11,808 nt of DNA from Deltaproteobacteria bacterium RIFCSPLOWO2_12_FULL_60_16 (GTDB taxonomy: Bacteria > Desulfobacterota > Binatia > UBA9968). Each line of letters begins with the position of its first letter. Within the stretch, counting starts at the first letter, position 1. The stretch spans positions 1-11,808 of the forward strand of contig MGSR01000027.1 of NCBI GenBank assembly GCA_001798565.1, read 5' to 3'. The notes beneath the pieces are model-generated. The model did not search any database. It had not been told where the DNA came from and saw only the letters and a program-made list of their open reading frames with translations. The translations under genes were made by a program, and so were the position numbers. Shown here one piece after another: positions 756 through 11,580 of the stretch.

Positions 756-1847
756 TCAGCTCTCCCCGACGATGACGCAGTGATCCGGATGCGCCAGGGC
801 GAAAACCTTCTGCCCCGTTTCGTAGCGCTGCGACGGGGGCGCGACGACGCGAAGCGCCATACGGTGGGCCGGAAGCTCGACCATATAGTCAAAGGCGTCG
901 CCGAAGTAGATGCGCCTCTGGATGACGCCGGGAAAGAGATTATAGCCGCTGCGCCGGCGCTGCTCGGCCTCGGCTTCGCTGCCTGACAGGGCGACGTTGT
1001 GTGGCCGGAGACAGAAAGAGACCGACTCCCCCTGAGCGTAGCGCTCCCTCGCGCTCACCTGCACGAGGATGCCTTCCCCAAGGTCCACCTTCCCTCCCTC
1101 CCGCCACTTCCCGCTGAGGATATTGGTCCTGCCGATAAACTCCGCCACGAAAGTGGTCTTGGGCCGCTCGAAGATCTCCTGCGGCGTGCCGACTTGAATG
1201 ACCTTTCCCAGGTGCATGACCGCGATCCGGTCGGAGGTCACCATCGCCTCCGCCTGATCGTGGGTGACGTAAATCGTGGTGATGCGAAACTCTTCGTGCA
1301 GGCGGCGGATCTCAAAGCGCATCTCCTCGCGCAGGTTGGCGTCGAGATTGCTGAGCGGCTCGTCGAGCAGCAAGATCTGCGGCTGCACCACCAGGGCGCG
1401 GGCCAGCGCCACTCTCTGCTGCTGGCCGCCCGACAGCTCCGCGGGATAACGATCCTTCAACGCGTCGAGATGGACCAGCCGCAGCAATTTTTCCACTCTT
1501 GTCCCGGGATCGTCGCCCGGGAGTTTCTTGAATTTCAGCCCGTAGGCGACATTCTGAAACACCGTCATGTGCGGCCACACCGCGTAGCTCTGGAAGATCA
1601 TCGACATGTTGCGGCGCTCCGGAGGGACCAGAACCGAGCGGGACGAAACTACCTGTTGGTTGACCCGGATCTCGCCCTCCTCCGGTTGCAAAAAGCCGGC
1701 GATCAGCCTCAGCGTGGTGGTTTTGCCGCAGCCCGAAGGACCGAGGAGGGAGACGAATTCCCCGTCGCCGATCTCCAGATGGAGATCATGCACGGCGGCC
1801 GCCTCGGCGAACCTCTTGGTCAATCCCTCCAGCGTGACCGTAGCCAT
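756..1847 (-). CDS. ABC transporter ATP-binding protein (Fe3+/spermidine/2-aminoethylphosphonate type, TOBE domain)
   Basis: A 363-residue cytoplasmic ATPase that powers the adjacent permease. It has all motifs of an active subunit: Walker A GPSGCGKTT at 36-44, Q-loop Gln86, signature LSGGQ at 138-142, Walker B ILLLDE at 158-163, D-loop SNLD at 166-169 and switch His196 in THDQ. The C-terminal region from about residue 235 is a TOBE-type regulatory domain, as in FbpC, PotA and PhnT relatives. The reading frame stays open upstream, but homology starts at MATVTLEGLTKRF. That ATG overlaps the last base of the permease stop (TAATG), a typical coupled start. Family is certain; the transported substrate is not. 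Confidence 0.95.
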   Translation of the reverse strand: MATVTLEGLTKRFAEAAAVHDLHLEIGDGEFVSLLGPSGCGKTTTLRLIAGFLQPEEGEIRVNQQVVSSRSVLVPPERRNMSMIFQSYAVWPHMTVFQNVAYGLKFKKLPGDDPGTRVEKLLRLVHLDALKDRYPAELSGGQQQRVALARALVVQPQILLLDEPLSNLDANLREEMRFEIRRLHEEFRITTIYVTHDQAEAMVTSDRIAVMHLGKVIQVGTPQEIFERPKTTFVAEFIGRTNILSGKWREGGKVDLGEGILVQVSARERYAQGESVSFCLRPHNVALSGSEAEAEQRRRSGYNLFPGVIQRRIYFGDAFDYMVELPAHRMALRVVAPPSQRYETGQKVFALAHPDHCVIVGES

Positions 1848-3559
1848 TATTCCCTCGTGGCCAGAACCTCTCTCTTCACCAGCCGCTGAACCGCGAGAAT
1901 GACCATGAAAGATACCAGCAATAACAGGATGCCGAGCACGGCGATCACCCCGATCTGCCCCTCCTCTTTGAGGTCGAAGATCACCACCGAGACGACCTTC
2001 GACTTGGGAGTAAAGAGCAGGATCGAGGCGCTGAGCTCCCGGATCACGCCGATGAAGATAAAACACCAGGTCGCGATCAGGCCGGTGCGGGCCAGCGGGG
2101 CGGTCACGTCCCTCAAGGCGCCCAGCCGGTTGGCCCCGAGGATGCGGCTCGCATCCTCAAGCTCCGGATGGATGCTCTTGAAAGTCGTCTCCGCCTGCGA
2201 GAAGCCGATCGGCATCTCCTTGGTGAGATAGGCGACGAACAAGATCCAGATCGTGCCGTACAAAACGATGGGCGGCCGGGCATAGGCCAGGAACAGGCCG
2301 ACCGCCAGAACGATTCCCGGCACGACCAACGGCGCCAGGGCGAAGAACGTGAGATAGCGCGCGCCCCAGAAAAGCTGGCGGTTGGTGATGTAGGCGATCA
2401 ATGCCGCGATGACCGTGCCCGCGCTGGCGGTCGCAATCCCGAGCTTGAAGGTATTGAGGATCGCGTCCTGGGTGTCGCCGTATTGAAAAAAGGCGAAGCT
2501 GAAGTTCTCGAGCGTGAAATTGTCCCAGGTGAGAGGCTGGGCCCAGGCCTTCGCCAGGGCCGCTTTCAGCAGAATCCAGTAGGGGAGAAAAACGGAAAGG
2601 GCAATAATCCCCAGCACCAGCAATAGAGCCGGGATGCGGAATATCCCGAGACGCAGCAGCCGGCGCTCCCCGCCCTTTCCGCCGACGGTGCTGTAGCCGC
2701 GCCGTCCCAGGATCTTCTTCTGCAGGGCGATCAGCAGCATGGTCGCCAGCAGCAGTGGAACGGAAAAGGCCGCCGCGAGATCCAGGCGGGGTGGGTACTG
2801 AAAGAGCGCCCAAATCTGGGTGGTGATCGTGTGCAGGCTCGCCGGCAGGCCGAGGATGGCCGGCGCCCCGAACAGCGAGAGCGAGTGCAGAAAGGCCAGG
2901 ATGAATCCTCCCAGCAGGGCCGGGGCCGCAAGCGGCAAGGTCACGGTCAAGGCCACCCGCAGCTTGTTCGCCCCCAGGATGTTCGCCGCGTCTTCGAGAT
3001 CCGAGGAGATCAGCTCGCAGACGTTGGCGATCATGGAGAAGACGTAGGGAAAGCTGTACAGGGCCATCACGAAAATGAGCCCTTCCATGCTGAAGATGTT
3101 GAAGAGGGCCTCCTCCGAGCCCGTGAGGGAGCGGTAGATCTTGTTGAGCAGACCGGCGTTCGGGCCGGCCAGGAGCGTCCAGGCGAAGGCCCCGAGAAAA
3201 GGAGGAGTGACGAAGGAGGCCATGACCAGGGCGCGGATCGTTCGCTTCAGCGGCAGATCGGTCCGGGTCACCAGCCAGGCCAGCAGGGAGCCGATCACGA
3301 CCGCGATCCCGCCCACCCAGAAGGAGATAATCAGGGTGTTCCAGATAGCCTTGAGATAGGCCTTCTCGGTGAAGACCTGGGCATAGCCGCTTGCGCTCCA
3401 GCCCGCTTCCGTTTGCAGGCTGGCAACAAAGATCCAGCCCAGCGGCAGGAGCATCAAGAAGACCAGAAACAGCGAGGCGCCGATCCAGACCGGAAGCGTT
3501 CGGTCCAGATTTCTGATGCCCTGCCAGCCTGATACTCTCAGTCGCCCTACCGCTTCCAC
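1847..3559 (-). CDS. ABC transporter permease, fused two-domain (FbpB/SfuB/ThiP-like)
   Basis: A 570-residue inner-membrane protein with two binding-protein-dependent permease domains in tandem, about six membrane segments each (roughly residues 23-285 and 305-565). Each half has an EAA loop for docking the ATPase: LEDAANILGANKL at about 188-200 and LEDASRILGANRLG at about 467-480. A single fused chain serves as both halves of the channel, as in the FbpB/SfuB iron permeases and ThiP. The start is a GTG at 3559; no ATG lies near the beginning of the homology. It begins 30 nt after the binding-protein stop and its TAA overlaps the ATPase ATG. Permease family is secure; substrate is open (Fe3+, thiamine, aminoethylphosphonate or an organic anion). 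Confidence 0.93.
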   Translation of the reverse strand: MEAVGRLRVSGWQGIRNLDRTLPVWIGASLFLVFLMLLPLGWIFVASLQTEAGWSASGYAQVFTEKAYLKAIWNTLIISFWVGGIAVVIGSLLAWLVTRTDLPLKRTIRALVMASFVTPPFLGAFAWTLLAGPNAGLLNKIYRSLTGSEEALFNIFSMEGLIFVMALYSFPYVFSMIANVCELISSDLEDAANILGANKLRVALTVTLPLAAPALLGGFILAFLHSLSLFGAPAILGLPASLHTITTQIWALFQYPPRLDLAAAFSVPLLLATMLLIALQKKILGRRGYSTVGGKGGERRLLRLGIFRIPALLLVLGIIALSVFLPYWILLKAALAKAWAQPLTWDNFTLENFSFAFFQYGDTQDAILNTFKLGIATASAGTVIAALIAYITNRQLFWGARYLTFFALAPLVVPGIVLAVGLFLAYARPPIVLYGTIWILFVAYLTKEMPIGFSQAETTFKSIHPELEDASRILGANRLGALRDVTAPLARTGLIATWCFIFIGVIRELSASILLFTPKSKVVSVVIFDLKEEGQIGVIAVLGILLLLVSFMVILAVQRLVKREVLATRE

Positions 3560-3589
3560 GCCGGATTTCCGCCGCCTGCCGCTCCCGCC

Positions 3590-4618
3590 CTAGGCGCCGA
3601 AGAACTCAACGAATTTTTTCTTGATCTCGGCGTTTTTCTTTTCTAACTCCGCTGGATCCGCGGCTAAAAGCTTAAGATCCTTAAGCTGGGGCTTATCCTT
3701 GGGATACGTCACCTGAGGATGCCCTGTGTACAGCCCTTGTTGATCGGCTAACATCTGCTGCGCCTCTTTGCTAAAGATAAAATCGGTAAACAGCTTGGAG
3801 GCATTCGGGTGCGGCGCATCCTTGGCTATCGCTGTCGGCGAAACAATAAGCGGGACCCCCTCCTTAGGATAGATGATCTTTATAGGGTTCCCCTGCTTCA
3901 TAGTCTTATAATAAAAATACTCGGCGCCATTGGCCCCAACGGCTCGTTCCCCTGATGCGATCACACCAGCCGGATCGTTCGCTGACTGGACCACATGCAG
4001 TTTGTTCTTCGCCAATTCCTTAAAGTAATCCCAGCCGTGCAAGTTCAGCAGCGCCAGCACATGGGTCATAATGATGCCGCTATATCCGGGATGTGCCGTG
4101 ACCATCTTCCCTCTCCACTTGGCATTCAAAATCTCCTTCCACGTCTTTGGCGCATCCTTTTCAGAAACGATCTTGGGATTGTAAGCAAGGACGGAGAGGG
4201 TGGCCCGCATGCCGTAGTAAAACCCTTCCTTGTCCTTGAAACCTTCGGGAAAGCTTTCCAATCCCTGAGGGACATATTTCATGAGCAGCCCTTTACCTTT
4301 TAGGAGAACAAAATGACCGCCGTCCGAGGTATGGATAATATCGGCATTCTTGATTCCCGCCGACACCTCCTGCATCACTCTTTGCAGAACCCTCTGCGAC
4401 CCCGAACGGTGGACCTCAACTTCGATCCCCTTATACTTGTTCATAAAAAGGTGCGCCAACGCGGTCGATGACGGGAGAGCGAGTGAGGTATACCAAGCTA
4501 CCTTCCCCTCCCTTTTTGCCGCTGCGACGAGGGCCGCGTCCTGGGCGGAGGCGACGGAACCCCAGGCGACAAGCGCCAGCACGGCCAGGTGTCTAAAAAT
4601 GCCAAATCTCTTTTCCAT
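3590..4618 (-). CDS. ABC transporter periplasmic substrate-binding protein (FbpA/AfuA-like family 1)
   Basis: A 342-residue extracytoplasmic solute-binding protein. The start at 4618 is chosen because it gives a classical signal peptide (MEKRF, hydrophobic core about 8-20, SVASA|QD cleavage after residue 25) and follows a GGGGGA ribosome binding site; the frame is open further upstream to about 4696. The mature part begins with LVAAAKREGKVAWYTSL, typical of the FbpA/AfuA/PhnS group. A tyrosine cluster YFYYK at 234-238 lies where FbpA-type proteins carry iron-ligand tyrosines, but ferric binding cannot be claimed from this alone. It lies 81 nt after the PrpD-like gene and 30 nt before the permease. 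Its GC content is visibly lower (about 48% in a sampled stretch) than its neighbours. Confidence 0.92.
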   Translation of the reverse strand: MEKRFGIFRHLAVLALVAWGSVASAQDAALVAAAKREGKVAWYTSLALPSSTALAHLFMNKYKGIEVEVHRSGSQRVLQRVMQEVSAGIKNADIIHTSDGGHFVLLKGKGLLMKYVPQGLESFPEGFKDKEGFYYGMRATLSVLAYNPKIVSEKDAPKTWKEILNAKWRGKMVTAHPGYSGIIMTHVLALLNLHGWDYFKELAKNKLHVVQSANDPAGVIASGERAVGANGAEYFYYKTMKQGNPIKIIYPKEGVPLIVSPTAIAKDAPHPNASKLFTDFIFSKEAQQMLADQQGLYTGHPQVTYPKDKPQLKDLKLLAADPAELEKKNAEIKKKFVEFFGA

Positions 4619-4699
4619 TATGTTTCCCCCTTTCCTTGGCGTGGTCATCCAAACAACGCCGTATGCCCCTTTATCACTACCCTGCCTCGCCTGCAATAC

Positions 4700-6070
4700 T
4701 CAATATAAGAGTTTTGCCAGTTCTCTAACGGACCTGAGCCTCTCCAACTTCCGCACGGCAGAGACGATCTTTTCAACTTTTCTTTCAGGCAAGGCAAACC
4801 CGGCATTGGCGCGAAACTTTGCTTCGATCTCCTCGGGCGGAAGCGGAGATTCCAGCCCGCCCCTCGGGTGGGGCTGGCTTTCCTCCCGTACTGTCCCGTC
4901 CTTGAGCCGGATGCGCACATGACCCGAGAAATGGCGCGGATAGTCGATCGTGGGGTCCAGCTGGTACCGTACCTTCTCAGCCACAGCCAGAACCTCCAAA
5001 TCCCGGATCGCCTTATCCGAGAACTCTTCAAGACCGGCCTTGCCCCGCACCAGCATGACGGCGATGCTGTAGGGCAGGCTGAACTTCGCCCCATAGGAGC
5101 TCGAAGGTTTTTGCTTCTCCTGAATAGGCTCCCAGAGGCGGTGCACCGTTCCTTCGGCCACCCGGCAGGTGATCTCCTCTATCTGCTCCGGCCGGAAGGA
5201 ATATTTTTCTCTCAGCTTGAGCGCGCAGTCCATGTAGGGATGAGAGATCGAGCCGCAGGGATAGGACTTGAAGGCGAGCCGGGGAATCTCCCAGCTCTTG
5301 CCGAGCTCGGCCAGTCTGTCGAGATTAGCGCCTTCCTCGCCGGCGCCGAAGGCGCGATAAAAACCATGGCGCCCTTCGAACACGGAGGCGGGGCCGCGAA
5401 AGCCGCGCCGGGCCAGGAGCACGGCGATAATCCCGCCGTGAGCCGACCAGCCCGGATGGAGTCTCTTGGTCCAGCTCCCGTCCGCCAGATATTCGATGAT
5501 TCCGGAGCTCTGGCTGCCGCAGATGCCGAAGGCGTCCGTCCACCGAGACGATTCGAGCTTATAGAGCTTGCCGGCGGCCGCCGCCGCGCCGAAAGTGGCG
5601 CACAGGGCGGTAGGGTGAAAGCCCCGCGCGTGGAACTTTCCGGGGGCCACCAGTCCCACCTTGCACATCACCTCCATCCCGGCCACCGCCGCCTCCAACA
5701 CCCTCTTCCCGCTGGCGCCGAGCGCCTCGCCCACCGCCAGCGCCGTGATGACCCCGCAACAGCCGGTGTGGACGATCGCCCCTTCCAAGGTGTCGTCGTA
5801 GTCCAGGCCATGGGCGAGGGTGCCGTTGGCCAGCACGGCATTGGCAGCGGCTGCCTTGCGCCGCGTGCCGATCAGCCGGCTCTCCCGAGCGCCGCCAAGG
5901 TCGGAGGCCACGTCGAGCGCCATCCGCCCGAACTCCATCGTCGAAGAGACCAGAGCGATCCCCAGGGTGTCGAGAACCACCAGCTTCGCCTTGTCCACCG
6001 CCCCGGGAGGGACTTCTTCAAGGCGCAGGCCCCGCACAAAGGCTCCTACCTTTTCCGAATACCGCTCCAC
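4700..6070 (-). CDS. MmgE/PrpD family protein (copy 1, downstream)
   Basis: A 456-residue cytoplasmic protein of the MmgE/PrpD fold, which includes 2-methylcitrate dehydratase and cis-aconitate decarboxylase. Visible family motifs are HGLDYDDT at 87-94, GFHPTA at 150-155, RLHPGWSAHGG at 203-213 and SYPCGSISHP at about 269-278. No ATG lies near the homology start. A GTG at 6070, preceded by GGGAG with a 6-nt spacer, gives MERYSEKVGAFVRGLRLEEVPP, which fits the family N terminus. The start lies inside the end of the upstream paralogue (25-nt overlap), implying coupled translation. Many family members have unknown substrates, so methylcitrate dehydration should not be assumed; no prpB or prpC is present. 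Confidence 0.88.
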   Translation of the reverse strand: MERYSEKVGAFVRGLRLEEVPPGAVDKAKLVVLDTLGIALVSSTMEFGRMALDVASDLGGARESRLIGTRRKAAAANAVLANGTLAHGLDYDDTLEGAIVHTGCCGVITALAVGEALGASGKRVLEAAVAGMEVMCKVGLVAPGKFHARGFHPTALCATFGAAAAAGKLYKLESSRWTDAFGICGSQSSGIIEYLADGSWTKRLHPGWSAHGGIIAVLLARRGFRGPASVFEGRHGFYRAFGAGEEGANLDRLAELGKSWEIPRLAFKSYPCGSISHPYMDCALKLREKYSFRPEQIEEITCRVAEGTVHRLWEPIQEKQKPSSSYGAKFSLPYSIAVMLVRGKAGLEEFSDKAIRDLEVLAVAEKVRYQLDPTIDYPRHFSGHVRIRLKDGTVREESQPHPRGGLESPLPPEEIEAKFRANAGFALPERKVEKIVSAVRKLERLRSVRELAKLLY

Positions 6071-7515
6071 CTTTTGCTCCCGGGGCGCTTCCGCTTCGCC
6101 CTTCTCTTCAGCTTCGCCATGGCGCCCGTTGACTTTCCCGCGGAAAGCGCTCGAACCAGCGGCAGGATGCTTCTCTGCCGGTCCAGGTTGGCCACCAGCT
6201 CGACAGCCGCCTCCGTGTTGCCGCGGGAAAGAACCAGACTGGCGCAATCGCGGAATTTCTCGCCGATCTCGGCCCAGCTCATGGGCTTGAGCGGATGGCC
6301 GCGCGCGACGTCCGCCCTCCCCTCGATGGACTTCCCGTCCTTCAGCTTGATGCGGACACGCGAGCGCACCTGATCGTATCCCAAGGCCTCGAGCTCCTGA
6401 TCCACGTAAAGCGTGACCCGCTTCATCAGCTCCACCACCTTGGGGTCGCGGACCTTTCTGTCCGTGAACTGGGCGATGCCCGCCTTGCGCTCCAAGACGC
6501 CTATCGCCATGCAGAACGGGATACTGAATTTTCCCTCGAGGGCGGTCTTGGGCATGGGATAGATCAAAGCGTTGGGAACGTTGGAATTGGTCCCCACTTC
6601 GATGGATTCGATCTGCTCCGCATGGAGGTTGTGCGTCTTGACCAGATCCAGAATACAATCCTGCGCCGGATGGGAGAGCGAGCCGGACGGATAGGGCTTG
6701 ATGGAAATCCCGGGATCCTGCATGAAGTAGGGCTTGCCCAGCCGGCCGCTGATTTTCTTCTCGTCGTAGCCGCCGGCCATCGCGTTGAAAAATCCCCTTT
6801 TGGCCTCGAGGATGTTGTGGGCCGAGGTAAAGCCCTTCTCGGCCAATAGCGCGGCGGTCACCCCGTTCTGCGCGGCCCGTCCGGCATGCAAAGGTTTGGT
6901 CATGGTCCCGAAGTTCTCGCGCAGCCCGGACGACATGCTGGCGGCGATCCCCAGGGCGCGGGCGCAGGCTTCCTCTCTCAGGTTCAAGATCGTACCCACC
7001 GCCGCGGCCGCCCCCAGACCCGCGATGGTCGCCGTCGAGTGAAATCCGGATTGGTAGTGGCGCGGGTTGATGGCGTCCGCGATGCGACACTCTACCTCCA
7101 CTCCCAGGATATAAGCCAAAAGAAATTCCTGGCCGGAAATCTTTTCCCCCTCCCCCACGGCTAAGATCGCCGAAAGCACCGGCACCGTGGGGTGGGTGAG
7201 CAATCCGTAGACCGCCTCCTTGGAGGTGGAGAGCTGAGTGTCGTCGTAATCCATGGCATGGCCGGCCGCGCCGTTGGCCAGAGCGGCCATCATCGACGGG
7301 ACCATGGTTCCCGTCCCCACGACCGTCGCCTCCTTCTTACCGCCGGATTGGCGGATCAACCCTTGCAGGATGCGAGAGCCTTTTTCCGTGCAGCCGGCCA
7401 GGGTGACACCCAGCCCGTCCAGGATAAAGCCCTGCGCCAGGCGGATGACCTCCGGGGGGATATCCCGGTAACGCGTTTCGACAACAAAATTGACAACTTC
7501 TTGCGTTAGTCCCAT
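6046..7515 (-). CDS. MmgE/PrpD family protein (copy 2, first gene of the minus-strand cluster)
   Basis: A 489-residue paralogue of the next gene, with HAMDYDDT at 86-93, GFHSTA at 157-162, KPLHAGRAAQNG and IKPYPSGSLSHPAQD. The start MGLTQEV is chosen because AAGGAGA at 7521-7527 gives a good ribosome binding site; the frame continues upstream without family similarity. The last 22 or so residues (KLKRRAKRKRPGSKRWSGIRKR) are very basic and unlike the family; they partly overlap the start of the next gene. The reaction is probably dehydration, decarboxylation or isomerisation of a di- or tricarboxylate-like compound, inferred from the family only. Two paralogues side by side may be successive steps, different stereospecificity, or a heteromer. 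Confidence 0.9.
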   Translation of the reverse strand: MGLTQEVVNFVVETRYRDIPPEVIRLAQGFILDGLGVTLAGCTEKGSRILQGLIRQSGGKKEATVVGTGTMVPSMMAALANGAAGHAMDYDDTQLSTSKEAVYGLLTHPTVPVLSAILAVGEGEKISGQEFLLAYILGVEVECRIADAINPRHYQSGFHSTATIAGLGAAAAVGTILNLREEACARALGIAASMSSGLRENFGTMTKPLHAGRAAQNGVTAALLAEKGFTSAHNILEAKRGFFNAMAGGYDEKKISGRLGKPYFMQDPGISIKPYPSGSLSHPAQDCILDLVKTHNLHAEQIESIEVGTNSNVPNALIYPMPKTALEGKFSIPFCMAIGVLERKAGIAQFTDRKVRDPKVVELMKRVTLYVDQELEALGYDQVRSRVRIKLKDGKSIEGRADVARGHPLKPMSWAEIGEKFRDCASLVLSRGNTEAAVELVANLDRQRSILPLVRALSAGKSTGAMAKLKRRAKRKRPGSKRWSGIRKR

Positions 7516-7638
7516 CGTGTTCTCCTTAGGAAGGCACTCGGTGAATATGGAGCAAAGAGCGATAGCATTATTGATCGCCTTTTTCCAGCCCGGCTCGCTA
7601 TCGAAAAACCTGCCTCCTCGCGCAACGAGGAGCGGCCC
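7516..7638. other. Divergent intergenic region, minus-strand leader part
   Basis: This holds the leader of the minus-strand cluster: the ribosome binding site at 7521-7527 and a perfect 7-bp hairpin CTCCTCG/CGAGGAG at 7614-7632 (loop CGCAA). Read on the minus strand, that hairpin is followed five bases later by five Ts, a weak terminator- or attenuator-like arrangement. I see no convincing -35/-10 pair or operator for the minus-strand genes here, and no gene. Confidence 0.4.
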
Positions 7639-7667
7639 TTGACACACCCTCCGGACTACGTTAACCT
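7639..7667 (+). promoter_or_regulatory. Putative sigma-70-type promoter for the riboswitch operon
   Basis: A perfect -35 box TTGACA at 7639-7644, a 17-nt spacer and a weak -10 TAACCT at 7662-7667. Transcription from here would start at about 7674, just ahead of the riboswitch P1 helix. The -10 matches consensus at only three of six positions, so the exact start is uncertain, but position and -35 are as expected. Confidence 0.45.
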
Positions 7668-7687: not shown

Positions 7688-7805
7688 CACCTTATCCAGA
7701 GTGGTGGAGGGATTGGCCCTTCGAAGCCACAGCAACCGGTCCCATCGTTAAGGTGGGGTGCTGGTGCTAATTCCCACCTCGCCTAGGGCGGGGGAAGATA
7801 AGGTG
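7688..7805 (+). promoter_or_regulatory. SAM-I (S-box) riboswitch aptamer
   Basis: The sequence follows the SAM-I consensus closely: CTTATCCAGAGTGGTGGAGGGA, then TTGGCCC, GAAGCC, GCAACC, AAGGTG, GGTGCTAATTCC and the closing GATAAG. P1 is a perfect 9-bp helix, 7688-7696 (CACCTTATC) with 7797-7805 (GATAAGGTG). The antiterminator GATAAGG..GAGGT at 7797-7809 pairs with ACCTC..CTTATC at 7814-7826, competing with both P1 and the terminator. High SAM should stabilise P1, free the terminator and switch the plus-strand operon off. It is placed in front of a thiocarboxylate sulfur-transfer operon instead of classical met genes. Confidence 0.96.
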
Positions 7806-7811
7806 AGGTGC

Positions 7812-7847
7812 AAACCTCTTCTTATCAATGGGAAGAGGTTTTTTTTT
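7812..7847 (+). terminator. Intrinsic terminator of the SAM-I riboswitch (expression platform)
   Basis: A perfect 10-bp stem, 7812-7821 with 7832-7841, around a 10-nt loop, running into nine Ts at 7839-7847. Its 5' arm is shared with the antiterminator helix formed with 7797-7809. The first ATG follows only 11 nt after the T run. Confidence 0.95.
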
Positions 7848-7858
7848 GGCCGTAGATC

Positions 7859-8653
7859 ATGAGTGTTCGTCTTACACCTGAGCAGATCGAGCGCTACAGC
7901 CGCCAAATCATGATTCCCGACGTCGGCGGCAAAGGACAGATCCGCCTCCGTCAGGGCCGGGTCTTGATCATCGGGGCCGGAGGGCTGGGATCGCCGGCGG
8001 CCTTTTATCTGGCCGCAGCCGGAGTCGGCACGCTGGGGCTGGTGGACAGCGATCGCGTCGATCTCTCCAACCTCCAACGGCAGATTCTGCATTCGACGGC
8101 GGACCTGGGCCGGGAAAAGGTCGCCTCCGCCAAGGACAAACTCGCCCGGCTAAACCCGGAGGTAGAGATCCTCGCCTTTCCCGTGCGCCTGGACGAAAAA
8201 AACGCGGCGGATCTCATTGCCGGCTATGATTTTATCGTCGACGGCAGCGATAATTTTGCCACGAAGTTCTTGGTCAACGACGCCGCTGTGGCTCTCGGCA
8301 AAGCGTTTTCCCACGCCGGGATCGTGCGCCTGCAGGGCCAGACCATGACCGTGATTCCCGGCAAGGGCGCCTGTTACCGCTGCCTGTTCAAGGACCCGCC
8401 CGCTCCGGGCGAGATCCTCAACTGCCAGCAGGCGGGCATCCTCGGGGCGATTGCCGGGACTATAGGCTCGATCCAGGCCACGGAAGCGATCAAATACCTG
8501 ATCGGCATGGAAGAAGAGCTGCTGGTGGATCGTCTGCTGACCTACGATGCCACAGCTATGAGGTTCCATACCATCGAGGTGCGAAGAGATCCCCGGTGCG
8601 GCGCCTGCGGCGACAACGCAAGGGGCGAGCGGAAGCTCCGTTCGATGGCTTGA
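7859..8653 (+). CDS. moeB: MoeB/ThiF/HcyF-type sulfur-carrier adenylyltransferase (E1-like)
   Basis: A 264-residue cytoplasmic enzyme that uses ATP to adenylate the C-terminal glycine of a ubiquitin-like sulfur carrier. Visible features are ERYSRQ at 11-16, the nucleotide-binding GAGGLGS at 39-45, VDSDRVDLSNLQRQILH at 62-78, DGSDN at 128-132, a zinc site of four Cys (172, 175, 247, 250; CYRC and CGAC) and the conserved crossover Cys189 in ILNCQQAG. It ends after the zinc site, so there is no rhodanese domain as in MoeZ/MOCS3 and sulfur must come from another donor or free sulfide. No clear Shine-Dalgarno sequence precedes the ATG. With a carrier gene two positions downstream and SAM-I control, it probably serves amino-acid sulfur transfer like HcyF. 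A molybdopterin or thiamine role remains possible. Confidence 0.93.
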   Translation: MSVRLTPEQIERYSRQIMIPDVGGKGQIRLRQGRVLIIGAGGLGSPAAFYLAAAGVGTLGLVDSDRVDLSNLQRQILHSTADLGREKVASAKDKLARLNPEVEILAFPVRLDEKNAADLIAGYDFIVDGSDNFATKFLVNDAAVALGKAFSHAGIVRLQGQTMTVIPGKGACYRCLFKDPPAPGEILNCQQAGILGAIAGTIGSIQATEAIKYLIGMEEELLVDRLLTYDATAMRFHTIEVRRDPRCGACGDNARGERKLRSMA

Positions 8654-8669: not shown

Positions 8670-9938
8670 ATGAGTTTCGTCAGAGGGCTTCAATGCAGAG
8701 AATGCGGCCAAGGGTATCCCAAGGAACCGCTGCATGTTTGTGAAACCTGCTTCGGTCCCCTGGAGATCGTCTATGACTACGACGGAATCAAGAAGGCGAT
8801 CAGCCGGGAAAAAATCCTCTCGCGCCCGAAGAGCCTGTGGCGCTACCGGGAGCTTTTACCGATCGACGGAGAGCCCCAGGCCGGACTCTATTCAGGCTTC
8901 ACGCCGCTCGTGCGCGCCCACAGGCTGGGAGAGGCCCTGGGCGTGAAAGAGCTCTATATCAAAGACGACTCGGTGAACCACCCCACGTTCTCGTACAAGG
9001 ACCGGGTGGTGTCGGTGGCCATCTCCAAGGCCATCGAGTTCGGATTCGATACGGTTTCGTGCGCCTCCACGGGCAACCTTGCCAACTCGGTCGCCGCGCA
9101 CGCGGCCAAGGCCGGCCTGAACTGCTACGTCTTTATTCCCGACGGCCTGGAACAGGGAAAGATCATCGGCTCGGCCATCTACGGGCCACGCACCATCTCG
9201 ATCAAGGGGAATTACGACGATGTCAACCGGCTGTGCAGCGAGATCGCGGACAAGTACGGCTGGGCCTTCGTCAACGTCAACTTGAGGCCCTACTATGCCG
9301 AGGGGGCGAAGACGCACGCCTTCGAGATCGCCGAACAGCTCGGCTGGAAGCTGCCGCGCCATGTGGTGGTCGCTTCGGCGGGAGGGACCATCCTCCCCAA
9401 GCTCGCCAAGGCCTTCAAGGAGCTCAAGCAGGTCGGGCTGATCGACGGCGGCAATTGTAAGATCTATTCTGCCCAGGCGAGCGGCTGCGCCCCCATCGTC
9501 CAGGCCTTAAAGAAAGGCACGGATCTTATCAGTCCGGTGAAGCCGAACACCATTGCGAGCTCCATCGCCATCGGCAATCCGGCGGACGGCTACTACGTGC
9601 TTCAGGCGGTGCGGGAGTCCGGCGGATGGGGCGAGGCGGTCACCGACGAAGAGATCCTCGATGGCATCAAGCTCCTCGCTCGCACCGAGGGAATTTTCAC
9701 CGAGCCGGCGGGCGGGACCGAGGTGGCGGTGACAAAAAAGCTGATCCAGCAGGGAAGGATACCGCGCGACGAATCCATCGTCATCAGCATCACGGGCAAC
9801 GGCTACAAGACCCTCGAGGTGGTAGCGCGGAGCGTGGAGCAGCCCTTCAAGATCCAGGCGAGTCTCTCAAGCTTCGATGAGCTTTACCTCCAGCTTGCCC
9901 AGCCGGCCCAGGGAAAGGCGCTGGCAGGCGAAGGCTGA
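8670..9938 (+). CDS. thrC: Threonine synthase-like PLP enzyme with N-terminal zinc ribbon
   Basis: A 422-residue fold-type II PLP enzyme. Threonine synthases convert O-phosphohomoserine and water to threonine and phosphate. The N terminus is a four-Cys zinc ribbon (C9, C12, C24, C27). The PLP lysine is Lys110 in HPTFSYKDR, with Tyr where classical ThrC has Phe (SFKDR). The phosphate-binding loop is STGNLANS at 133-140. AAGGAAGG lies just before the ATG and the gene starts 16 nt after the MoeB-like stop. In this operon, beside a sulfur carrier and under SAM control, the family name may mislead: an enzyme activating O-phosphohomoserine could accept sulfur instead of water and give homocysteine. 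That is inference; ordinary threonine synthase or a cysteate-synthase-like role are alternatives. Confidence 0.85.
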   Translation: MSFVRGLQCRECGQGYPKEPLHVCETCFGPLEIVYDYDGIKKAISREKILSRPKSLWRYRELLPIDGEPQAGLYSGFTPLVRAHRLGEALGVKELYIKDDSVNHPTFSYKDRVVSVAISKAIEFGFDTVSCASTGNLANSVAAHAAKAGLNCYVFIPDGLEQGKIIGSAIYGPRTISIKGNYDDVNRLCSEIADKYGWAFVNVNLRPYYAEGAKTHAFEIAEQLGWKLPRHVVVASAGGTILPKLAKAFKELKQVGLIDGGNCKIYSAQASGCAPIVQALKKGTDLISPVKPNTIASSIAIGNPADGYYVLQAVRESGGWGEAVTDEEILDGIKLLARTEGIFTEPAGGTEVAVTKKLIQQGRIPRDESIVISITGNGYKTLEVVARSVEQPFKIQASLSSFDELYLQLAQPAQGKALAGEG

Positions 9939-10010: not shown

Positions 10011-10289
10011 ATGACGGTGCGTGTTCGTGTGCCAACGCCCCTTCGCAAATTCACCAACGGGGCCGATGAAGTGAATGGCCAGGGCGGCAATGTCCGCGCC
10101 CTGGTGGAAGACTTGGACCGGCAGTTTCCAGGAATCAAAGAGAGAATCTGTGATGAAACGGGAAAGGTCCGCCGCTTTGTGAATGTCTATGTCAACGGCG
10201 ATGACATTCGATTCTTGCAGAACTTGGAAACCTCTCTCAAAGAGGGGGACGCCATCTCGATTGTCCCTGCCATAGCAGGCGGGGCCTGA
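10011..10289 (+). CDS. CysO/MoaD/ThiS-family sulfur carrier ending in Gly-Gly-Ala
   Basis: A 92-residue ubiquitin-fold sulfur carrier. It resembles Mycobacterium tuberculosis CysO in length and in stretches I remember (VRVPTPLR near the start, RRFVNVYVNGDDIRF at about 54-68, and an end of the form IVPAIAGG). In such carriers the terminal Gly is adenylated and turned into a thiocarboxylate that delivers sulfur to a PLP enzyme. Here the stop follows one extra codon, so the protein ends AGGA. The terminal Ala must be removed before activation, as known for HcyS-Ala of Wolinella; no protease gene is in the window. TAAGGAGG at 9997-10004 is a strong ribosome binding site. The gene is less GC-rich than its neighbours. 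Confidence 0.93.
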   Translation: MTVRVRVPTPLRKFTNGADEVNGQGGNVRALVEDLDRQFPGIKERICDETGKVRRFVNVYVNGDDIRFLQNLETSLKEGDAISIVPAIAGGA

Positions 10290-10309: not shown

Positions 10310-11311
10310 ATGATTACGTCCATCACCGCCCGCGCACTGGCCCGTGAAGCCGCCGTGGAGCCGAGGATCGCCAATTCCGTTCTCGATCTGGTGGGCAACA
10401 CCCCCGTGCTTCAGATCGGCAGGATCGCCCAGGGGCTATCCCCGGCGGTACGAATCTTCGCCAAGCTGGAGGGATTCAATCCGGGCGGCTCGGTGAAAGA
10501 CCGTCCGGCCCTGAAGATGGTCCAGGAAGGGATCCGCTCAGGAAAACTCGCGGCGGGAAAAAGCATCATCGACTCGACTTCGGGAAACACGGGCATCGCC
10601 CTGGCGCTGATCGGCAGGGTCCTGGGCTATCCGGTGGAGCTGGTTATGCCCTCCAACGTGAGCACCGAGCGGAAGCGCATCATCGCGGCGCTCGGGGCGA
10701 AAATCATCTTCAGCGATCCGCTGGAGGGATCGGACGGCGCGATCCGCCTGTGCCGCAAGGTCCTGGAAGAAAACGCCGACAAATACTTCAAGCCCGATCA
10801 ATATTTCAACCCGATGAACCCGCAGGTCCACTACGAAACCACCGGTCCGGAGATCTACCGCCAGACGGGCGGGGAGATCACCCACTTTATCGCCGGGATC
10901 GGCACCGGCGGCACGATCATGGGCGCCGGCCGATACCTGAAAGAGAAAAACCCGAGGATCCGGGTCATCGCGGTCGAGCCGGACGATGCGCTGCACGGGC
11001 TCGAAGGGCTAAAGCACATGGCGAGTTCCATCGTTCCGGGGATCTACGATGAAAAAGCGCTGGACGAAAAAATCGCCATCTCCACCGAAGACGCCTATGC
11101 CATGGTCTACCGGCTGGCCCAGGAGGAGGGGCTTCTGGTCGGGCAGTCTTCCGGCGCTGCCATGCATGCCACTCTGCGGATTGCCAGGAAACTCAGGTCC
11201 GGCACCTTGGTGACGGTTTTTCCCGATTTCGGCGACAAGTATCTGACCACCAATCTTTGGGTGGGATGGCGTGACAAGATGTCGGTCGGGAATCTCAACT
11301 TTTCCATTTGA
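10310..11311 (+). CDS. cysM: CysM/CysK-family PLP-dependent synthase (carrier-linked cysteine synthase-like)
   Basis: A 333-residue fold-type II PLP enzyme of the cysteine synthase/cystathionine beta-synthase family. Visible features are LVGNTP at 27-32, PLP Lys63 in NPGGSVKDRPA, TSGNTG at 90-95, PSNVSTERKR at 114-123, HYETTGPE at 174-181, the phosphate loop GTGGT at 198-202 and QSSGAA at 279-284. SVKDRPA, the STERKR region and the HYxTTGPE stretch recall mycobacterial CysM, which takes sulfur from CysO thiocarboxylate. The position after AVEP, where mycobacterial CysM has an Arg for O-phosphoserine, is Asp225 here, so the acceptor may be O-acetylserine or a homoserine ester. It starts 20 nt after the carrier gene with a weak ribosome binding site. 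The first 20 or so residues precede family similarity. Confidence 0.9.
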   Translation: MITSITARALAREAAVEPRIANSVLDLVGNTPVLQIGRIAQGLSPAVRIFAKLEGFNPGGSVKDRPALKMVQEGIRSGKLAAGKSIIDSTSGNTGIALALIGRVLGYPVELVMPSNVSTERKRIIAALGAKIIFSDPLEGSDGAIRLCRKVLEENADKYFKPDQYFNPMNPQVHYETTGPEIYRQTGGEITHFIAGIGTGGTIMGAGRYLKEKNPRIRVIAVEPDDALHGLEGLKHMASSIVPGIYDEKALDEKIAISTEDAYAMVYRLAQEEGLLVGQSSGAAMHATLRIARKLRSGTLVTVFPDFGDKYLTTNLWVGWRDKMSVGNLNFSI

Positions 11312-11322
11312 ACCGCCCAGCG

Positions 11323-11580
11323 ATGAAACGCCAAAAAGAAAAAGTCTGTGAGAGAATCTATCTGACCTTTCCGAAGGAGCTGGTCAAGGAGCCGATCGTC
11401 TGCTTGCTGGCGAAAAAATTCGACATCGTCTTCAACATCCGGGGATCGACGGTCACCCCGGAGATGGCCCTAGTGGCGCTGGAAATCGACGGCGAGCGCG
11501 GGGAAGTGGACAGGGCGGTTCACTGGCTCAAAGAAAAGGGCGTCATGGTCGAGCCGATCGAGAAAAACGTCATCGAGTAA
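11323..11580 (+). CDS. Stand-alone NIL-domain protein
   Basis: An 85-residue protein that is essentially one NIL domain (RIYLTFPKELVKEPIVCLLAKKFDIVFNIRGSTV... with the family's N-I-[LR] core at about 38-40). NIL domains are known as the methionine-sensing C-terminal domain of the importer ATPase MetN, and in ferredoxin-fused proteins tied to homocysteine synthesis in methanogens. ATG 11323 lies 11 nt after the CysM-like stop; a TTG at 11308 overlapping that stop is an alternative giving five more residues. As the last gene of a SAM-regulated sulfur operon it could be a small methionine or homocysteine sensor, or a subunit of the synthase. No catalytic residues are recognised. Confidence 0.85.
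   Translation: MKRQKEKVCERIYLTFPKELVKEPIVCLLAKKFDIVFNIRGSTVTPEMALVALEIDGERGEVDRAVHWLKEKGVMVEPIEKNVIE

What the first reader, a model, noticed from the sequence alone, without database searches (positions are those of the whole stretch)
10281..10289. Sulfur carrier ends in Gly-Gly-Ala: it must be trimmed before it can work
Seen: codons GCA GGC GGG GCC TGA end the carrier, so the reactive Gly-Gly is capped by one Ala. Known: CysO, MoaD and ThiS normally end in GG, and in Wolinella succinogenes HcyS-Ala is uncapped by the metalloprotease HcyD before HcyF adenylation. Inference: this CysO-like carrier uses an HcyS-type proteolytic activation step, mixing features of the mycobacterial cysteine pathway and the Wolinella homocysteine pathway.
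Basis: partly seen in the sequence, partly recalled or inferred. Interest (0 to 1): 0.85.

Follow-up and report, generated by a model that had tools for sequence, protein, structure and literature searches.

The report
Capped sulfur carrier in methionine operon

Summary
In detail: carrier ORF 10011-10289 (+) ends Ala-Gly-Gly-Ala-stop. It is no private change: of the 120 best protein hits 102 end GG plus one residue, 7 in plain GG. But the residue drifts (V, A, L, R, M...), so Ala itself is not conserved. Of 155 distinct PAIAGG carriers, 134 have a tail (69 of one residue, 29 of two, 23 of 3-21; 12 run into a NIL domain, 1 into an E1); of 36 more distant carriers, 7 do. Pro and Asp never follow GG in the 134. 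The genome shows one JAMM protease. In a phylum sample a JAMM of its profile is in 29 of 34 genomes with the carrier and 14 of 213 without, within 3 kb of it in 17. Within the class it is nearly universal, whatever the carrier's end, so trimming by it is likely, with published precedent, but not shown. The pathway needs reassigning: a SAM-I riboswitch and terminator precede E1, ThrC-like, carrier, CysM-like and NIL genes. The riboswitch tracks the ThrC-like gene (46 of 60 class loci against 1 of 32), pointing to MetM-like homocysteine synthesis, perhaps beside cysteine synthesis. A new variant of a known kind.

The parts
7689..7804 (+). SAM-I riboswitch aptamer (S box, RF00162) in the leader of the operon
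   Evidence: Rfam 87.1 bits against a gathering score of 44.4, model positions 1-108 of 108
7812..7847 (+). Terminator-like hairpin (13 pairs, 7812-7841, ending in a T run to 7847) between aptamer and first gene; in the predicted minimum-energy fold of the leader the aptamer's 3' strand (7797-7803) pairs instead with 7820-7826, a possible antiterminator
   Evidence: the consensus scan found 8 terminator-like sites in the region against 4.4 expected in shuffles, so the scan alone is weak
7859..8653 (+). E1-like adenylyltransferase (ThiF/MoeB family, no rhodanese domain found), predicted activator of the carrier
   Evidence: PF00899 1.5e-81; of the NCBIfam models only PRK05690 (MoeB subfamily) passes its cut-off, 271.3 against 266
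8670..9938 (+). Threonine-synthase-like PLP enzyme, proposed MetM-like homocysteine synthase
   Evidence: TIGR00260 299.8 bits and PRK08197 312.6 bits, both over cut-off as threonine synthase; separate from seven ThrC-type paralogues in a tree
10011..10289 (+). CysO-like (MoaD/ThiS fold) sulfur carrier, 92 aa, PAIAGG-A
   Evidence: PF02597 8.4e-17; best PDB match of the profile 3dwg_C, the carrier chain of the entry whose chain A is a cysteine synthase B, E 2.7e-31; that this chain is CysO is recalled
10278..10286 (+). Gly-Gly plus the one-residue cap (Ala); predicted cut in the protein between the residues encoded by 10281-10283 and 10284-10286
   Evidence: direct reading; tail statistics
10310..11311 (+). 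CysM-like cysteine synthase (PLP)
   Evidence: TIGR01136 cysKM 351.0 bits over cut-off; TIGR01138 cysM 369.6 bits, below its cut-off of 394.2
11323..11580 (+). Small NIL-domain protein; in other genomes of the phylum sample this domain is fused to the carrier directly after GG
   Evidence: PF09383 1.9e-12; fusions

Best explanation
The gene encodes a precursor of a CysO-like sulfur carrier. Steps: (1) translation gives carrier-Gly-Gly-Ala (shown by sequence); (2) a JAMM metalloprotease encoded elsewhere in the genome cuts after Gly-Gly (inferred); (3) the E1-like enzyme adenylates the exposed Gly and a sulfur donor makes the thiocarboxylate (inferred from family); (4) PLP enzymes of the operon take the sulfur: the ThrC-like enzyme as a MetM-like homocysteine synthase on O-phosphohomoserine, and the CysM-like enzyme as a cysteine synthase (inferred); (5) if the product stays attached as carrier-GG-homocysteine or carrier-GG-Cys, the same JAMM releases it (inferred). 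A capped newborn carrier (GG-X) has the same bond as the product-loaded carrier, so a product-release protease would uncap it at no extra cost. That would explain why the tail is short, its identity drifts, poorly cleavable residues are avoided, and the protease is kept even where the cap is lost. The operon is predicted to be switched off by SAM through a SAM-I riboswitch and terminator.
For: Cap kept in position but not identity; fewest changes on a FastTree of 155 carriers: 27 in the identity of the single cap residue, 11 between plain and tailed. Tails in 134 of 155 PAIAGG carriers against 7 of 36 more distant ones. No Pro or Asp after GG in 134 tailed locus carriers or 339 tailed distinct proteins (sets may overlap); single caps 0 of 69 Pro/Asp against 11.6% at C-termini of 558 long ORFs of the class loci. 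In-frame fusion through GG to NIL in 12 of the 155 and in all 120 listed hits of a fusion query, and to an E1 once (L147): GG of such a fusion can be activated only if cut. The GG junction is the low-confidence linker of the fusion model. JAMM residues E25, H91, H93, S101, D104 invariant in the 18 orthologues aligned, of 19 found (one with an internal stop left out). JAMM in 29 of 34 carrier-bearing against 14 of 213 other phylum genomes, within 3 kb of the carrier in 17 of the 26 outside the class. Its model best matches archaeal JAMM1 in complex with ubiquitin-like SAMP2. JAMM found for 14 of 15 plain-GG class loci. SAM riboswitch and its tie to the ThrC-like gene. No PF01053 and no HcyBio found in G021, G004, G018, G116, 97-100% complete. 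Precedents: PMC6006322, PMC4326299, PMC12172450.
Against: No cleavage was shown. Within the class the JAMM does not track this carrier: it was found in 115 of 128 genomes with a strong carrier hit and in 17 of 20 without one, so it may have other partners. It was not found in several genomes with a capped or fused carrier, some nearly complete: G381 and G191 (99%), G298, G014 and G067 (94%), G320 (93%). In the window's family it lies apart from the operon beside an alpha/beta hydrolase (19 of 19). Asp does follow GGG in one distant paralogue (L363). 43 of 60 class loci with the ThrC-like gene are from genomes that also have a PF01053 enzyme. Sequence models call the ThrC-like enzyme threonine synthase; MetM activity is by analogy, and a Microcystis ThrC 51.6% identical to MetM, next to a metO-like carrier, acted mainly as threonine synthase and deaminase and did not raise methionine (PMC12172450 passages). 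I could not read the Wolinella or MetM papers.
Confidence: 0.62

Rival explanations
1. The cap is removed, but by a general carboxypeptidase or another housekeeping protease; the JAMM only releases the amino-acid product or serves other partners.
For: Some capped genomes show no JAMM. The JAMM is also present in 17 of 20 class genomes without a strong carrier hit. One- and two-residue tails dominate, as an exopeptidase would tolerate. In the window's family the JAMM is not in the operon.
Against: Fusions through GG to an 80-residue NIL part or to an E1 need an endopeptidase cut. A JAMM lies within 3 kb of the carrier in 17 of 26 carrier-bearing genomes outside the class. Loss of the JAMM PtmS1 abolished the products that use capped carriers in Streptomyces (PMC6006322).
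Confidence: 0.22
2. The extra residue is a tolerated C-terminal decoration that stays on; the carrier acts in a role that needs no thiocarboxylate at Gly91.
For: The identity drifts as at a site under little constraint.
Against: GG is invariant in the 21 aligned carriers, tail length is strongly biased to 1-2 residues (98 of 134), Pro/Asp are avoided, an E1 gene lies within 5 kb in 88 of 92 class loci, and E1 chemistry needs a free Gly carboxylate (established knowledge).
Confidence: 0.07
3. Pathway alternative: the operon makes cysteine only (CysO/CysM style); the ThrC-like gene is an ordinary threonine synthase that is co-transcribed.
For: The carrier is nearest to CysO among solved structures; the CysM-like gene follows it directly; 31 of 92 class loci have carrier, CysM-like and E1 without ThrC-like within 5 kb; NCBIfam calls the ThrC-like protein threonine synthase; the Microcystis ThrC result (PMC12172450).
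Against: SAM-I riboswitch in front of the operon, tied to the ThrC-like gene (46 of 60 against 1 of 32). G021 (100% complete) has two further ThrC-type genes and a CysK elsewhere. No PF01053 or HcyBio found in several near-complete genomes. 31 of 32 class loci without the ThrC-like gene are from genomes with a PF01053 enzyme.
Confidence: 0.25

Closest known systems
Capped sulfur carriers of a thioplatensimycin-producing Streptomyces, PtmS2 (GG-MV) and PtmS3 (GG-C), with JAMM protease PtmS1 (PMC6006322; passages and section 7 seen)
   Same: Sulfur carriers with one or two residues after GG in a genome with a JAMM metalloprotease; the JAMM and the E1-like PtmS4 are needed for the products.
   Different: There the carriers feed thiocarboxylic-acid natural products; here the carrier sits behind a SAM riboswitch with amino-acid genes, most carriers of the class are tailed, and relatives are fused to NIL or E1.
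MetM/MetO homocysteine route of Streptomyces (Hasebe et al. 2024, not held; known through passages of PMC12172450)
   Same: ThrC-like PLP enzyme with a sulfur-carrier gene; SAM riboswitch upstream of metM in Streptomyces albulus.
   Different: The window's operon adds E1, a CysM-like enzyme and a NIL protein. I could not compare sequences, nor check whether MetO is capped.
[quoted passage not shown] paper not held; content recalled, its existence confirmed in PMC5764234 and PMC6225789 passages)
   Same: As recalled: carrier ending GG-Ala, metalloprotease uncapping, thiocarboxylate used for homocysteine, and the protease also releasing the product.
   Different: As recalled Wolinella uses MetY; here a ThrC-like enzyme stands in that place, and the Ala is not conserved.
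CysO / CysM / Mec / MoeZ cysteine pathway of Mycobacterium (PMC3227635, passages)
   Same: Nearest carrier among solved structures, CysM-like neighbour, JAMM-type peptidase in the genome; Mec releases cysteine from CysO-cysteine.
   Different: The CysO chain in the PDB ends in plain GG; MoeZR has a rhodanese-like domain and none was found in this E1; no SAM riboswitch, ThrC-like or NIL gene appears in the passages seen.
MoaX, a MoaD-MoaE fusion cleaved after GG (PMC4326299; abstract and passages)
   Same: A sulfur carrier fused through GG, cut between Gly and Ser, and inactive unless cut.
   Different: The partner is MoaE and the protease was unidentified; here the fusion partner in relatives is a NIL domain.

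Membership tests
MoaD/ThiS-fold sulfur carrier (CysO-like) | ThiS/MoaD family by sequence profile | tested here: met
   PF02597 8.4e-17, 61.9 bits over the cut-off of 22.5; PDB hit 3dwg_C 2.7e-31
MoaD/ThiS-fold sulfur carrier (CysO-like) | C-terminal Gly-Gly free in the encoded protein | tested here: not met
   GG is followed by Ala; plain GG in only 21 of 155 close relatives
Capped carrier needing proteolytic maturation | One or a few residues after GG, kept in position across relatives | tested here: met
   134 of 155 tailed; 113 of the 120 best protein hits
Capped carrier needing proteolytic maturation | A JAMM protease with intact metal motif in the same genome | tested here: met
   L001/L067; E25, H91, H93, S101, D104 invariant in 18 aligned orthologues
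Capped carrier needing proteolytic maturation | The protease cuts after GG and only the cut form is thiocarboxylated | not testable with these tools
   needs purified proteins
MetM/MetO-type homocysteine synthesis | ThrC-family enzyme encoded with a sulfur carrier | tested here: met
   window 8670-9938 and 10011-10289; ThrC-like within 5 kb in 60 of 92 class loci
MetM/MetO-type homocysteine synthesis | SAM riboswitch control | tested here: met
   SAM-I riboswitch 7689-7804 by covariance model; 46 of 60 class loci with ThrC-like; SAM binding not tested
MetM/MetO-type homocysteine synthesis | Sequence orthology to Streptomyces MetM | not tested
MetM/MetO-type homocysteine synthesis | Homocysteine made from O-phosphohomoserine | not testable with these tools
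   enzyme assay needed
HcyS-type (Wolinella) pathway, features recalled | MetY (PF01053) partner | tested here: not met
   no PF01053 found in the window genome (78.6% complete) or in G021 of the same genus (100% complete)
SAM-I riboswitch | Full-length match over the curated score | tested here: met
   87.1 bits against 44.4, positions 1-108 of 108

The most novel reading that the evidence does not exclude
In this bacterial class and its relatives one sulfur carrier, made as a ubiquitin-like precursor (capped by a throw-away residue, or fused through GG to a NIL domain), feeds two PLP enzymes, one for homocysteine (ThrC-like) and one for cysteine (CysM-like). A single JAMM protease both matures the precursor and releases each product, so the cap is a near-neutral by-product of having a product-release protease. 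In the fused forms the cut would yield carrier and NIL protein in a fixed 1:1 ratio.
Probability: 0.38. Interest if true: 0.65.

Novelty: new variant of a known kind. Interest (0 to 1): 0.52.

Why it matters
It turns one odd C-terminal residue into a testable rule: carriers used with a product-release JAMM can keep any short cleavable tail, whereas most of the more distant MoaD/ThiS-like carriers in the sample end exactly at GG (27 of 36). It also gives a candidate homocysteine route for a widespread, mostly metagenome-known class in which several near-complete genomes showed neither PF01053 enzymes nor HcyBio. And it shows natural carrier-NIL fusions that resemble ubiquitin precursors and are ready-made substrates for testing JAMM cleavage.

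Tried and rejected
Sequencing error or private change: rejected, a residue after GG is the rule in relatives. Conserved Ala: rejected, the residue drifts even within the genus. Overlap of the carrier stop with the next start as the reason for the extra codon: rejected for the window, 20 bases lie between the stop codon and the CysM-like start. JAMM in the operon: not so in the window's family, where it lies beside an alpha/beta hydrolase (19 of 19 loci). A link between cap and JAMM within the class: none visible (68 of 73 capped and 14 of 15 plain loci are from genomes with JAMM), which is why I favour product release as its main job. ThrC-like genes of 60% identity or more were not a single clade by themselves; with four outlying cluster genes added they separate from the seven paralogues. 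Whether the CysM-like enzyme uses O-phosphoserine or O-acetylserine was not resolved. Literature: the searches listed no paper on this operon in Binatota-type bacteria or on carrier-NIL fusions; I saw listings and passages only, and the library lacks most subscription papers, so this is weak.

Caveats on counts: one search uses only the best 120 listed hits of each protein search (7998, 3375 and 7999 passed the threshold); the fusion query finds fusions by construction. One search merges identical carriers and drops matches that end before model position 88. Its control group of 30 contains loci fetched on purpose as weaker matches; on checking this report I fetched six more from class genomes without a strong carrier hit: 3 plain, 3 tailed, making 27 plain, 2 without GG and 7 tailed of 36; the Fisher test is for 4 of 30 and was not redone. 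The 29 of 34 and 14 of 213 counts were made by hand from the tables, with E below 1e-30 as the line for the carrier; so were the 128 strong-carrier class genomes (tables). The ThrC-like count is 60 of 92 (alignment at least 35% of its length) and 59 of 92 (at least 50%). Some loci are cut by contig ends, so riboswitch misses may be edges. The C-terminal control uses mechanically chosen long ORFs, some of which may not be genes. After this check I lowered the main confidence from 0.65 to 0.62, raised the first rival from 0.20 to 0.22 and lowered the novel case from 0.40 to 0.38, because the JAMM is as common in class genomes without a strong carrier hit as in those with one.

Full report
Observation. 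The carrier gene is 10011-10289 on the + strand and ends GCA GGC GGG GCC TGA, that is Ala-Gly-Gly-Ala-stop. It is a MoaD/ThiS-family protein (PF02597). The best match of its family profile among solved structures is chain C of 3dwg (E 2.7e-31), whose chain A is a cysteine synthase B; I recall this as the CysM-CysO complex. That chain ends in plain GG. The window is contig C27 of a 1.64-Mb, 78.6% complete genome; relatives are labelled Deltaproteobacteria, Candidatus Binatia or Binatota.

Is the cap real and conserved? Among the 120 best protein hits 102 have exactly one residue after the final GG, 11 have more and 7 end in plain GG. The single residue varies: V 28, A 20, L 19, R 13, M 7, S 4, C 4, N 2 and one each of I, Y, T, H, Q. 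In the window's genus it reads A, A, V, V in four genomes. From the loci fetched up to, 155 distinct carriers with a strong match (over 100 bits) gave 21 plain, 69 with one extra residue, 29 with two, 23 with 3 to 21, and 13 with long in-frame extensions. Thirty more distant carriers gave 24 plain GG, 2 without GG and 4 with tails; six further ones fetched later gave 3 plain and 3 with tails. The first difference (134 of 155 against 4 of 30) has a Fisher p of 6e-15, which ignores kinship. On a FastTree built without the C-terminal end, the fewest changes are 11 between plain and tailed and 27 in the identity of the single cap residue.

What is constrained. Identity is nearly free, but Pro and Asp never follow GG in 134 tailed locus carriers or 339 tailed distinct proteins (the two sets may overlap). 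Glu occurs in 3 of the 134 and in none of the 339, Trp in none. Single caps were Pro or Asp in 0 of 69, against 11.6% at the C-termini of 558 long ORFs of the class loci (binomial 2e-4, not corrected for kinship). Among the more distant paralogues one does have Asp after its glycines (L363). Avoidance of Pro and acidic residues is what a site that must be cut at GG|X would show.

Fusions. In other genomes of the phylum sample the carrier runs in frame through GG into the NIL-domain protein that is a separate gene in the window (L088, L090, L105, L106, L109-L114, L146 and the shorter L092). A search with one such fusion listed 120 of 3375 hits, all with 79-80 residues after GG; the residue after GG is Ser in 82, Ala 33, Thr 3, Gly 1, Leu 1. 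The query being a fusion, such hits are expected; the point is the residue after GG and that the fusions are many. In the predicted model of a fusion (mean pLDDT 81.5) the low-confidence stretch 89-91 is the Ala-Gly-Gly between two folded domains. One carrier is fused to an E1 (L147), and one weaker relative to an E1 with a C-terminal extension (L267). These proteins can be thiocarboxylated at GG only if cut there.

The protease. One Prok-JAB/JAMM protein was found in the genome (G000:C66:8040-8501, minus strand). Eighteen aligned orthologues keep E25, H91, H93, S101 and D104. Its AlphaFold model (pLDDT 89.7) best matches Pyrococcus JAMM1, first in its complex with the ubiquitin-like SAMP2; proteins of Desulfitobacterium and Salinibacter are among the top seven, beside archaeal Rpn11 homologues. 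An orthologue is in 19 of 25 family genomes, and the profile matches 132 of 148 class genomes, 89 of 95 of good quality. In a sample of 247 phylum genomes it is in 29 of the 34 with a strong carrier and in 14 of the other 213. Outside the class it lies 0.3-2.8 kb from the carrier in 17 of 26 such genomes. In the window's family it stands apart, beside an alpha/beta hydrolase in 19 of 19 loci. Against: within the class it does not track the carrier, being in 115 of 128 genomes with a strong carrier hit and in 17 of 20 without. It was not found for five of 73 capped class loci with context, among them G381 (99% complete), for six capped genomes of the window's family, or for G067, G120, G148 and G191 of the phylum sample.

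Cap and protease are not tied within the class either: 14 of 15 plain-GG loci are from genomes with the JAMM. This fits a protease whose standing job is to release the amino acid from the loaded carrier, as Mec does for CysO-cysteine (PMC3227635, passages), though other partners are possible. The newborn GG-X and the loaded GG-Cys have the same kind of bond, so uncapping would come for free. That is inference.

Precedents. Capped carriers with a JAMM are known. In a Streptomyces PtmS2 (GG-MV) and PtmS3 (GG-C) coexist with JAMM PtmS1; loss of ptmS1 abolishes the thioacid products, while loss of ptmS2 alone does not, which the authors read as redundancy (PMC6006322, section 7). MoaX is cut between Gly82 and Ser83 and is inactive uncut; its protease was unidentified (PMC4326299, abstract and passages). 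Operons of carrier, E1, JAMM and cysteine synthase were catalogued in 2006 (PMC1779556, passages). The Wolinella HcyS paper is not held; what I say of it is recalled.

The pathway. A SAM-I riboswitch lies at 7689-7804, 87.1 bits against a gathering score of 44.4. It is followed by a terminator-like hairpin at 7812-7841 with a T run, and the predicted fold of the leader holds a competing pairing of 7797-7803 with 7820-7826; the E1 gene starts at 7859. With a model built from 12 such riboswitches, 46 of 60 class loci with a ThrC-like gene near the carrier have one, against 1 of 32 without. G021 (100% complete) has a CysK and two further ThrC-type genes elsewhere, so the PLP enzymes of the operon need not be its ordinary threonine and cysteine synthases. 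In genomes G021, G004, G018 and G116 neither a PF01053 enzyme nor HcyBio was found. Of the 32 class loci without the ThrC-like gene, 31 are from genomes with PF01053, against 43 of 60 with it. A ThrC-like homocysteine synthase, MetM, with a sulfur carrier, MetO, and a SAM riboswitch is known from Streptomyces through a citing paper (PMC12172450, passages); the original is not held. The same citing paper reports that a Microcystis ThrC, 51.6% identical to MetM and beside a metO-like gene, acted mainly as threonine synthase and deaminase, which counsels caution. The window operon looks like a MetM-type homocysteine route with an added CysM-like enzyme.

Verdict. Observation confirmed; trimming likely, by the JAMM most likely; the special role of Ala rejected; the pathway reassigned towards MetM-like homocysteine synthesis. 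The parts are known kinds; the drifting cap across the class, the NIL fusions and the possibly shared carrier behind one SAM riboswitch make it a new variant.

Noticed in passing
window 7689-7847: SAM-I riboswitch with terminator-like hairpin in front of the operon; the finding does not mention it and it changes the pathway reading.
   Followed up: yes
L088, L090, L092, L105, L106, L109-L114, L146; proteins P0121-P0240: Carrier fused in frame through Gly-Gly to the NIL domain, resembling ubiquitin precursors.
   Followed up: partly
L147 and L267: Carrier fused through GG to an E1-like domain, in L267 with a further C-terminal extension; no JAMM was found in L147's genome (G191, 99% complete).
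   Followed up: partly
G021, G004, G018, G116 (97-100% complete): No PF01053 enzyme and no HcyBio found: no textbook homocysteine synthase seen in these genomes.
   Followed up: partly
G173, G244, G289, G308 and others of the class: Near-complete class genomes with the JAMM but without a strong hit to this carrier, so the JAMM may have other partners; two of them have a distant paralogue ending GGG-EV or GGG-DV (L362, L363).
   Followed up: partly
L145 42-160: SAM-riboswitch match upstream of a more distant ThrC-like (41%) and carrier cluster with tail LSL in another family of the phylum; no JAMM found in that genome (G067).
   Followed up: no
L065, L272, L038, L365: Distant MoaD-like paralogues with tails after GG (V, RCC, LQ, CGAEARNT), exceptions among mostly plain-GG paralogues.
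   Followed up: no
window 756-4696, minus strand: Likely ABC transporter set: solute-binding protein at 3590-4696 (PF13343, PF13416); the permease and ATPase were judged by eye only.
   Followed up: no
window 4700-7647, minus strand: Two MmgE/PrpD-like genes in tandem upstream of the operon on the opposite strand (family match run only for the one at 6046-7647; the other judged by eye).
   Followed up: no
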